Origin: a virus | Virus record (IMG/VR): IMGVR_UViG_3300020125_000029 | Span: 1 to 37,224 of that record | Strand: one strand, 5' to 3' | DNA length: 37,224 bases | In this document: in pieces, positions 1,405 to 10,957 of the stretch | How positions within the stretch are numbered: position 1 is the first letter of the stretch | How the letters are laid out: each line of letters opens with the position of its first letter | The notes under the pieces: model-generated | Told to the model about the DNA's origin: nothing | The model's input: the letters and a program-made list of their open reading frames with translations, nothing else | Database searches by the model: none | Position numbers and translations under genes: made by a program

Positions 1405-1432
1405 AGCTTACCATTTTTATACAGGAAGTCAA
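1405..1432 (-). promoter_or_regulatory. Sigma70-like promoter for genes 1374 to 1
   Basis: On the minus strand, a TTGACT -35 box (1427-1432) and a TAAGCT -10-like box (1405-1410) are 16 bases apart. The -35 lies on the edge of the inverted repeat at 1431-1484. The first gene begins about 30 bases downstream. The -10 match is weak, but the layout resembles the stronger promoters at 2804 and 7750. Confidence 0.5.
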
Positions 1433-1484
1433 CAGCCTTAATCAAATTATTTTTAATTAACTTTCTTAACTGATTAAGGCTGTT
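1431..1484. repeat. 14-bp perfect inverted repeat after the parB-like gene
   Basis: Arms at 1431-1444 and 1471-1484 (AACAGCCTTAATCA and its complement) enclose a 26-base AT-rich loop. It lies just after the stop of the ParB-like gene and overlaps the -35 box of the next operon. No clear U-tract follows on the minus strand, so a simple intrinsic terminator is doubtful. It could be a terminator with a weak tail, or an operator controlling the adjoining promoter. Confidence 0.5.
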
Positions 1485-1493
1485 GTATTTATG

Positions 1494-2303
1494 TCACAAT
1501 CCGAGCACCTTGCGAATAATCTCGAATTGCTCTTGTGGCATCTTGATTACGACAATCTCGCTATCGGTATCATCAATATCGGCGTACTCGAATGCTTCTT
1601 TCACGGCTACCGCTTTGTTGACCTTGGGAACGCCACCAGTAGCTTCCCCGACATGCCGTTGCATAACCTTGGTTTTGCCTTCCGCTTGCGCTACGGCTAT
1701 TCCCTGCTTCAATGCGGCTTCTGCGGCAGTACCTTCAGCCTTGACGACTGCCATAGCCGTGCTTGGCGCGACTTGGCCGTTATGCACCATCGTTTTGACG
1801 CCTTCCGGCAGCGTATTGTAATCGAGCACTTGGCTGATACGCGCAGCTGATACGCCAGCACGCTTCGCTATGTCGCCTTGGTTCCAGCCCATATCGAGCA
1901 AACGCTTATAGAGCTTGGCATTCTCCAAGATCGAAAATGGCTTGCCGGAATTGCGAAGATGCTGATTAAAGAGCCGATCCGGCTCATTGGCGTATCGTTC
2001 GCCAACCTTGCAAGGAATGGTCTTGATATCAGCCTTTAGGAACTCGATTGCGTAAAGCGTAGCTCGCAAACGGCATTCACCATCCTCTAGCCAAGCCTTA
2101 CCATCTTCCCAATTGACCGTAAGCGGCTCTTTCACGCCGACTTCGGCAATCGACTTAGCGAGCATTTCAACATGCTCGATATTGGAAGGGTCTTTAAAGT
2201 CGCGGCTGTTCCAGCCGGATTTGACGTGAATATTGTGCGGTGCAATACGATGGATATCGCTGCGACCTTCCGAGATAGATGCTAGTCCAGTTGTCTTTGA
2301 CAT
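1494..2303 (-). CDS. ParB/Spo0J-like nuclease-fold protein with HTH
   Basis: A 269-residue protein with the layout of the ParB/RepB/Spo0J family. The N-terminal ParB box is seen around residues 20-100, with GECRLRAT (75-82) in the place of the usual GERRxRA motif. A helix-turn-helix follows near 135-165 (GDIAKRAGVSAARISQVL), then an alanine-rich segment and an acidic C-terminus. ParB proteins bind specific DNA sites and act in partition or as regulators. No ParA partner is visible in the window, so a role as regulator or in DNA organisation is as likely as partition. It is translated from ATG 2303 after an AGGGG site. Confidence 0.85.
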   Translation of the reverse strand: MSKTTGLASISEGRSDIHRIAPHNIHVKSGWNSRDFKDPSNIEHVEMLAKSIAEVGVKEPLTVNWEDGKAWLEDGECRLRATLYAIEFLKADIKTIPCKVGERYANEPDRLFNQHLRNSGKPFSILENAKLYKRLLDMGWNQGDIAKRAGVSAARISQVLDYNTLPEGVKTMVHNGQVAPSTAMAVVKAEGTAAEAALKQGIAVAQAEGKTKVMQRHVGEATGGVPKVNKAVAVKEAFEYADIDDTDSEIVVIKMPQEQFEIIRKVLGL

Positions 2304-2331
2304 GATGATTAGGCCCCTAGTTAGAGAATGA

Positions 2332-2409
2332 TGGATAGGGTAGGAGTTGAACCTACCGTTCCGTTTAGGCTTGATTAGAGCTTAACGTGCGATCATCAAT
2401 CGCCAAACC
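2332..2409 (-). other. Degenerate tRNA-like hairpin string
   Basis: The 128-base gap between two genes holds hairpins that partly resemble a minus-strand tRNA. A perfect T-arm with a seven-base TTCAACT loop lies at 2340-2356. An anticodon-like arm with one mismatch and a U at position 33 lies at 2367-2383, at the right distance. Total length to a weak 5' acceptor match is 78 bases. The D-arm does not form and the acceptor has two mismatches; instead there is a GCGAT hairpin at 2389-2403. It may be a decayed tRNA, a tRNA 3' end used as an attachment site, or only RNA hairpins. Confidence 0.2.
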
Positions 2410-2431
2410 CAACCGGGCACTCCGTTGAAGA

Positions 2432-2644
2432 TTAACGCAATGTAACAGTTGTTAACTCAACATGCAAGCCGGAACGCTTTGAAAGTTCAAGAATGGCTGC
2501 ATTTTCATCCGTTACGTTAGCATCAACCAAATGAGCACATTCGCCAACAACGTTAGCAATATCACCAAGTTGCGGTGCATCCCAATTGCCACGATTACGA
2601 AGAACCGTTTGCGCAATTGAGGTAAGAGCTTCGATCTTCGTCAT
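2432..2644 (-). CDS. Hypothetical protein, 70 aa
   Basis: Small acidic protein of unknown function, predicted mostly helical with a beta-like C-terminus (HVELTTVTLR). It is the first gene after the promoter at 2804-2832 and the long-stem element at 2673-2799, so those two elements probably control it and the ParB-like gene behind it. The start ATG at 2644 follows AGGG in the shared leader (ATCGAAGCA ... TAATCAA). Confidence 0.65.
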   Translation of the reverse strand: MTKIEALTSIAQTVLRNRGNWDAPQLGDIANVVGECAHLVDANVTDENAAILELSKRSGLHVELTTVTLR

Positions 2645-2672
2645 TTGATTAGTCCCTTTGCTTCGATTTGAT

Positions 2673-2799
2673 AAGTTGACTAGGCGAGAGATTGATACCG
2701 TCTAAGCGCCCTTTGTATGGATTTTTAAGAGTGGTGCTCACTCCCCATTCGGCATTTCTTAGAACTCTCCGTCTTTTCAATCTCTCGCCTAGTCAACTT
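2673..2799 (-). ncRNA. Structured RNA or element with 23-bp perfect stem
   Basis: Two 23-base arms at 2673-2695 and 2777-2799 are perfect reverse complements (each contains TTGACTAGGCGAGAGATTGA or its complement). They enclose 81 bases. Inside, CTAAG/CTTAG and GAGTG/CACTC pairs form further helices when read on the minus strand. The promoter at 2804-2832 should start transcription within one or two bases of the first arm, so the RNA would begin with this stem. It lies 28 bases upstream of the gene at 2644. It could be a 5' leader, a stable small RNA, or a MITE-like insertion; no target duplication was seen. Confidence 0.5.
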
Positions 2800-2803
2800 C
2801 AGT

Positions 2804-2832
2804 ATCCTACTCCCCTAAATACGATAAGTCAA
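2804..2832 (-). promoter_or_regulatory. Sigma70-like promoter, TTGACT-N17-TAGGAT
   Basis: On the minus strand the -35 TTGACT (2827-2832) and the -10 TAGGAT (2804-2809) are exactly 17 bases apart. The expected start of transcription, near 2798, is at the foot of the 23-bp stem. It should drive the gene at 2644 and the ParB-like gene. Confidence 0.65.
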
Positions 2833-2939: not shown

Positions 2940-3119
2940 CTACTTCTGCGCTGCACTAAGCTTATTCTTCAACTTAAAGTAGCGACAATGACCCTTGGGC
3001 GAGATATCACCGAAAACTAGAGTACAGCGATTAGGCGCACGGAACATCGTGCAATCTTGGCATTGGTCTTTCTTAGCCGGTTCAACGTACTCGGCTTCGG
3101 ACTTCGGTATTTTAGCCAT
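2940..3119 (-). CDS. HiPIP-like Cys-rich protein, 59 aa
   Basis: The protein carries four cysteines in the order CQDC, C, C, with the spacing QCQDCTMFRAP..RCTLVFGDI then GHCRYF. This resembles the short high-potential iron-sulfur-like proteins often encoded by phages, with the signature C-x2-C-x(8)-C-x(12)-C and a PxGxCxYF ending. Metal or cluster binding is inferred, not shown. The ATG at 3119 is chosen because it overlaps the upstream stop as TGATG. It ends the coupled operon running down from 4006. Confidence 0.65.
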   Translation of the reverse strand: MAKIPKSEAEYVEPAKKDQCQDCTMFRAPNRCTLVFGDISPKGHCRYFKLKNKLSAAQK

Positions 3120-3298
3120 CACTTCGCCTTCAGTCGATTTATGAGCTTATAGATACGATCAAGCGCATAATTGATATTAACCAACCGCCGCTTATGTTGC
3201 TTCAATAAAAATTCCAATTCATCGCGCAAGTTCTTAGCAAAATGCAACTGTTTACGATTACTGCGTTTGCTCTTGCTATGCCTAACAGGCTCGCTCAT
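3119..3298 (-). CDS. Small basic helical protein, 59 aa
   Basis: A short gene joined to both neighbours: its ATG overlaps the upstream stop as ATGA and its TGA overlaps the next ATG as TGATG. The protein begins MSEPVRHSKSKRSNRKQ and is strongly basic. The rest looks like one long amphipathic helix or coiled coil (LRDELEFLLKQHKRRL). Function unknown; the charge suggests nucleic-acid contact. Confidence 0.65.
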   Translation of the reverse strand: MSEPVRHSKSKRSNRKQLHFAKNLRDELEFLLKQHKRRLVNINYALDRIYKLINRLKAK

Positions 3299-7316: not shown

Positions 7317-7357
7317 TTCGATTACTCCTGCTTCGATTGATGAATTAATTATCCGAA

Positions 7358-7402
7358 ATAGCCGGTACTCTTATTGGCACAACGCGGTCTAGTACCGGCT
7401 AT
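7358..7402. terminator. 12-bp inverted repeat, possible terminator
   Basis: Arms 7358-7369 and 7391-7402 (ATAGCCGGTACT and its complement) pair perfectly around a 21-base loop. On the minus strand the second arm is followed by TTTCGGATAATT, a poor U-tract. It separates the genes at 7724-7431 from the basic-protein gene at 7316, so partial termination or RNA processing is plausible. Confidence 0.45.
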
Positions 7403-7411
7403 CGCTAACAA

Positions 7412-7420
7412 TCACTTCAT
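7412..7420 (-). other. Two-codon minigene AUG-AAG-UGA with strong SD
   Basis: A perfect AGGAGGG (7426-7432) lies five bases before an ATG that is followed by one Lys codon and TGA. Ten bases later comes the hairpin at 7358-7402. The layout recalls the lambda bar minigenes, whose two-codon peptides trap peptidyl-tRNA. It could equally be the left-over start of a lost gene. Confidence 0.3.
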
Positions 7421-7749: not shown

Positions 7750-7778
7750 AACCTACCAGCTTTAAATCAGCTTGTCAA
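7750..7778 (-). promoter_or_regulatory. Promoter TTGACA-N17-TAGGTT, leftward
   Basis: Minus-strand -35 TTGACA (7773-7778) and -10 TAGGTT (7750-7755) with 17-base spacing, about 25 bases from the first start codon. One copy of the octamer TGTGGGCA lies at 7787-7794, just upstream of the -35 box. Confidence 0.65.
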
Positions 7779-10928: not shown

Positions 10929-10957
10929 TTGACTTCCGAATTTTTGGGGAATAGGTT
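10929..10957 (+). promoter_or_regulatory. Main rightward promoter, TTGACT-N17-TAGGTT
   Basis: The -35 TTGACT (10929-10934) and -10 TAGGTT (10952-10957) are 17 bases apart, 26 bases before the first start codon. A second TTGACA lies 20 bases upstream (10909-10914) without a good -10. It should transcribe the whole replication operon, with the HTH gene diverging on the other side. Confidence 0.65.

What the first reader, a model, noticed from the sequence alone, without database searches (positions are those of the whole stretch)
2673..2799. 127-base element with a perfect 23-bp stem starting at a promoter's +1
The TTGACT-N17-TAGGAT promoter at 2804-2832 would start RNA at the first base of a perfect 23-bp stem enclosing smaller paired segments. 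It then leads into a gene and the ParB-like gene. Stems this long are rare in phage leaders. It may be a stable small RNA, a regulatory leader, a double-stranded RNA decoy, or a MITE-like insertion.
Basis: partly seen in the sequence, partly recalled or inferred. Interest (0 to 1): 0.65.

Follow-up and report, generated by a model that had tools for sequence, protein, structure and literature searches.

The report
Single-copy 127-base hairpin after phage promoter
One phage genome carries a real, perfect 23-base-pair hairpin exactly where an RNA made from a conserved phage promoter would begin; its relatives have the promoter but not the hairpin, so it looks like a recent insertion that most likely changes how that messenger RNA is cut or protected.

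Summary
On the minus strand, 2799-2673 is a 127-nt inverted repeat with two perfect 23-nt arms and an 81-nt spacer (fold z = -7). No shuffled version of the window has a perfect inverted repeat longer than 16 bp. The smaller paired segments inside it are not better than chance (loop z = -0.85). The promoter TTGACT-N17-TAGGAT is credible because the nearest relative (ParB-like protein 79% identical) has the same promoter and leader at the same place. That relative lacks the 127 bases, and so do the more distant relatives read upstream of their parB-like genes. Removing the element joins promoter to leader almost as in the relative, so it is a lineage-specific insertion (or a local inverted duplication). 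No second copy, sequence relative or compensatory change was found, so a conserved RNA is unsupported. There is no target-site duplication, no TA terminus and no recombinase found, so it cannot be filed as a MITE or an invertible switch. Best reading: a fold-back insertion transcribed as the 5' end of the orf70-parB mRNA, acting, if at all, as an RNase III site or 5'-end protector, as transcribed NEMIS/Correia elements are reported to do. It does not hide the ribosome-binding site.

The parts
2804..2832 (-). promoter TTGACT-N17-TAGGAT
   Evidence: exact match; same promoter at the same place before parB in the nearest relative L004/L006
2777..2799 (-). 5' arm of the 23-bp stem (AAGTTGACTAGGCGAGAGATTGA); predicted +1 at about 2797
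2696..2776 (-). 81-nt spacer/loop, weakly structured; holds a possible 5-codon ORF (MPNGE)
   Evidence: fold of the loop alone z = -0.85; short ORF read from the sequence
2673..2695 (-). 3' arm of the stem (TCAATCTCTCGCCTAGTCAACTT)
2645..2672 (-). leader with ribosome-binding site, ATCAAATCGAAGCAAAGGGACTAATCAA, shared with the parB leader of the relative
2432..2644 (-). 70-aa orphan ORF, first gene behind the hairpin
   Evidence: ORF; no relatives; low-confidence helical model, pLDDT 61
1494..2303 (-). ParB-like gene (phrog_1033; Pfam HTH_ParB)

Best explanation
A lineage-specific fold-back insertion of 127 bp lies between a conserved phage promoter (TTGACT-N17-TAGGAT) and the conserved leader/ribosome-binding site. 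Shown: the perfect inverted repeat, the conserved promoter and leader around it, and the absence of the element from relatives. Inferred: transcription from that promoter puts a blunt 21-23 bp double-stranded stem at the very 5' end of the orf70-parB mRNA. The stem leaves the ribosome-binding site as it was, so any effect is on the RNA itself: cleavage by host RNase III, which would release the leader and the downstream message, or protection of the 5' end. This is how transcribed NEMIS/Correia hairpins are reported to act in Neisseria. The effect may be small or neutral.
For: Perfect 23-bp arms, far beyond chance. Promoter and leader conserved in the nearest relative; excising the element restores near-colinearity (alignment score 90.6 against a best of 79.3 in 1000 shuffles of the downstream flank). 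No such hairpin upstream of parB in the relatives read. Predicted +1 falls within 2 nt of the base of the stem (position read from the sequence). Ribosome-binding-site and start-codon accessibility are nearly the same with and without the element. No terminator-like site on the minus strand there. RNase III cleavage of transcripts at MITE terminal repeats is documented (PMC10969869, PMC2229807).
Against: No transcript data. No relatives of the element, hence no covariation and no sign of selection on it. The one alphaproteobacterial RNase III read about needs longer dsRNA than the E. coli enzyme for best activity (PMC6121014), and 23 bp is short. The host is unknown.
Confidence: 0.42

Rival explanations
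1. Neutral debris: the inverted repeat arose by insertion of an unknown element or by local inverted duplication/template switching between promoter and leader, and has no function.
For: Single copy, present in one genome only; loop unstructured; arms perfect, so young. The arm resembles a shortened copy of the relative's promoter (all aligned bases match, with three gaps; shuffle P = 0.01 before correction for six tests).
Against: Its placement at +1, leaving promoter and leader intact, is neat, but one case proves nothing.
Confidence: 0.33
2. MITE-like mobile element with 23-bp terminal inverted repeats.
For: Size and repeat length are in the range of bacterial MITEs (24 bp for Correia/NEMIS; <200 bp in all; PMC2229807); filled site against empty site in the relative.
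Against: No target-site duplication for any trimming from -3 to +6 bases and any length from 2 to 12; ends AA/TT, not TA; no second copy in the window, 2.9 million viral contigs, about 85,000 species genomes, phage, plasmid or E. coli records at the sensitivities used.
Confidence: 0.12
3. Discrete small RNA or double-stranded decoy, processed from the 5' end and acting in trans.
For: Promoter at the base of the stem; very stable.
Against: No Rfam family, no homologue, no terminator after the stem, loop not structured beyond chance.
Confidence: 0.08
4. DNA-level device: paired protein-binding sites or an invertible segment between the arms.
For: Identical inverted sites with centres 104 bp apart (about ten helical turns); each arm holds TTGACT.
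Against: No tyrosine (PF00589) or serine (PF00239) recombinase family found in this record or four relatives (this record is 37 kb against about 58 kb in three of the relatives, so a gene could be missing); no further copy of the arm elsewhere in the window.
Confidence: 0.05

Closest known systems
Correia/NEMIS elements of Neisseria
   Same: About 107-155 bp, inverted repeats of about 24 bp, co-transcribed, filled/empty sites; RNA hairpin cut by RNase III (PMC2229807, PMC10969869)
   Different: No TA termini or target-site duplication here, single copy, no sequence relationship found; cleavage not shown
ERIC elements of enterobacteria
   Same: 127 bp, palindromic, intergenic, transcribed
   Different: ERIC terminal repeats are short (7 bp contiguous, PMC2229807); no match of this element to 5,426 E. 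coli genomes
T7 early-mRNA RNase III sites (R1.1 and others)
   Same: Phage mRNA hairpin outside coding sequence, as substrate for host RNase III (R1.1 described in PMC6121014)
   Different: R1.1 is intercistronic, 60 nt, with an internal loop; this one is at the 5' end, with a perfect 23-bp stem and a large loop
Integron attC sites
   Same: Hairpin of similar size; arm ends GTTGACT/AGTCAAC near the GTTRRRY/RYYYAAC boxes (from memory)
   Different: Box consensus fails (C in a purine position), box order reversed, stem perfect; rejected

Membership tests
MITE (bacterial miniature inverted-repeat element) | short (<200 bp), non-coding, terminal inverted repeats | tested here: met
   127 bp, 23-bp perfect repeats
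MITE (bacterial miniature inverted-repeat element) | several copies in a genome or across genomes | tested here: not met
   one copy in the window; none elsewhere at the sensitivities used
MITE (bacterial miniature inverted-repeat element) | target-site duplication and/or TA termini | tested here: not met
   no duplication of 2-12 bp for any trimming of the ends from -3 to +6; ends AA...TT
RNase III-processed hairpin leader | long double-stranded stem in a transcribed leader | tested here: inconclusive
   23-bp stem behind a promoter conserved in the nearest relative; transcription itself not shown
RNase III-processed hairpin leader | cleavage by RNase III | not testable with these tools
   needs RNA-end mapping
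Conserved structured RNA | homologues with compensatory base changes | tested here: not met
   no homologue in 80 primase-bearing loci or in the parB-upstream regions read
Invertible (phase-variable) segment | cognate recombinase encoded nearby | tested here: not met
   PF00589 and PF00239: no match in G000, G001, G002, G003, G011; the window record may be incomplete

The most novel reading that the evidence does not exclude
A phage-borne fold-back element that inserts exactly at a promoter's +1, so that the target message gains a double-stranded 5' cap-like stem without disturbing promoter or translation signals: a new, so far single-copy mobile regulator of phage mRNA stability.
Probability: 0.06. 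Interest if true: 0.55.

Novelty: new member of a known kind. Interest (0 to 1): 0.22.

Why it matters
It is a clean natural filled-site/empty-site pair: the same promoter and leader with and without a perfect 5'-terminal stem. If transcribed, it would allow a direct test of what a double-stranded 5' end does to phage mRNA maturation and lifetime. Otherwise it is a small lineage-specific oddity.

Tried and rejected
Rfam at gathering and relaxed thresholds: only chance hits, such as MIR868 at 17 bits against a cut-off of 200. Exact 21-mer, 16-mer and gapped-arm searches in viral contigs and an 18-mer in species genomes: nothing real; the five 16-mer hits lack an inverted mate of more than 6 bases nearby. 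Blastn against phages, plasmids and E. coli: nothing above chance. ERIC, attC and invertible-segment readings rejected as given above. I asked whether the hairpin is this phage's version of the inverted iteron arrays that many primase relatives carry downstream of primase. It is not placed like them, and a different inverted repeat (7340-7420), shared with the nearest relative, lies in the interval between primase and the VRR-NUC gene; so I do not equate them. Sequestration of the ribosome-binding site: not supported. Structure of the 70-aa protein: low confidence, not pursued.

Full report
What is there. On the minus strand 2799-2673, two 23-nt arms are perfectly complementary, with 81 nt between them. 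The fold energy (2799-2645) is -56.7 kcal/mol, z = -7.0, and the stem explains it: the 81-nt loop alone folds no better than shuffles (z = -0.85). In 200 Markov-shuffled versions of the window the longest perfect inverted repeat was 16 bp. So the stem is real, while the 'smaller paired segments' carry no signal.

Surroundings. The window is a 37-kb virus record. It encodes a primase/helicase (phrog_3022), a Sak4-like annealing protein, single-strand-binding protein, Cas4-like exonuclease, helicase, DNA polymerase and processivity factor. The hairpin sits in the leftward transcription unit between a 60-aa ORF (2940-3122) and a 70-aa orphan ORF followed by a ParB-like gene. The promoter TTGACT-N17-TAGGAT ends 4 nt before the stem.

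Comparison. The nearest relative (G001, loci L004/L006; ParB-like protein 79% and primase 77-78% identical) has AGTTGACTTAATGTATGAAGGCGAGTAGGAT-TGCTTTTG-TCGAAGCGAGAAAGGACTAATCAAATG before parB. The window has AGTTGACTTATCGTATTTAGGGGAGTAGGAT-ACTG-[127 nt]-ATCAAA-TCGAAGCAAAGGGACTAATCAAATG before the 70-aa ORF. Excising the 127 nt brings promoter and leader into register with the relative, with only small gaps. The relative also lacks the 70-aa ORF and the following ~130 bp. The regions upstream of parB were also read in seven more distant relatives (L007, L008, L016, L062, L063, L065, L099), and none has the hairpin; small unrelated ORFs often occupy this spot, so it is a variable site. Among 80 primase-bearing loci no copy of the element or of the 70-aa ORF was found, though not all of these loci reach the equivalent place.

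Is it a family? Searches of viral contigs, species genomes, phages, plasmids and E. coli genomes (83) gave only chance matches. The collection scans need exact matches of 16-21 bases, so a diverged copy could be missed. Without a second sequence there is no covariation test. MITE criteria: size and terminal repeats are met; copy number, target-site duplication and TA ends are not. Recombinases for an invertible segment were not found in this or four related records; this record is 37 kb against about 58 kb for three of the relatives, so absence here is not conclusive.

Likely action. With usual sigma-70 geometry the RNA would start near G2797, within 2 nt of the base of the stem (inference). 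The stem does not alter predicted accessibility of the ribosome-binding site and is not followed by a U-run terminator on that strand. The likeliest consequence is therefore on RNA processing or stability, by host RNase III or by 5'-end protection, as reported for transcribed Correia/NEMIS elements (PMC2229807, PMC10969869). A caution: an alphaproteobacterial RNase III needs longer duplexes than the E. coli enzyme for best activity (PMC6121014), and the host here is unknown.

Origin. The arm can be aligned as a gapped copy of the relative's promoter (AGTTGACT..AGGCGAG.A.GATTG; shuffle P = 0.01, one of six comparisons). This is a weak hint that it arose by local duplication and inversion of promoter DNA. 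Insertion of an unknown element is equally possible.

Verdict. It is a single-genome fold-back insertion with plausible but unproven effects on one mRNA, and of modest interest.

Noticed in passing
L071:7550-7748, L079:13183-13455, L081:2463-2665, L101:9943-10089, L110:13150-13263, L113:15551-15765, L117:10415-10635, L122:6072-6223, L124:9598-9724 and others: Many phages with this primase family carry an inverted pair of iteron-like arrays (such as ATATAATAAATATAATAAATATAA) about 80-165 bp apart, often just downstream of the primase gene and in several next to a shared motif GCTAAGTCATTGATTT: a candidate replication origin.
   Followed up: partly
window 7340-7420 (-) and L006:4911-4990: Intergenic long hairpin shared by the window and its nearest relative, with the apical stem changed on both sides (GGTACT/AGTACC against ACCTA/TAGGT): a conserved structure better supported than the one in the finding.
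   Followed up: partly
window 2304-2432 (-): Between the 70-aa ORF and parB lies a sequence like the 3' half of a tRNA (T-arm GTAGG-TTCAACT-CCTAC, then CCTATCC-A) with poorly matching D-arm; not called by ARAGORN or Rfam. Decayed tRNA or attachment-site-like remnant.
   Followed up: partly
window 10929-10957 (+), 2804-2832 (-), 7750-7778 (-); L006 promoter before parB: Promoters with a shared TTGAC-N(17)-TAGG(A/T)T form, several followed by a common leader TCGAAG..RBS..TAATC(A/G)AAATG; a phage-wide promoter/leader style.
   Followed up: partly
window 1430-1485: 15-bp perfect inverted repeat with 26-nt spacer right after parB, its second arm running into the -35 box of the next promoter.
   Followed up: no
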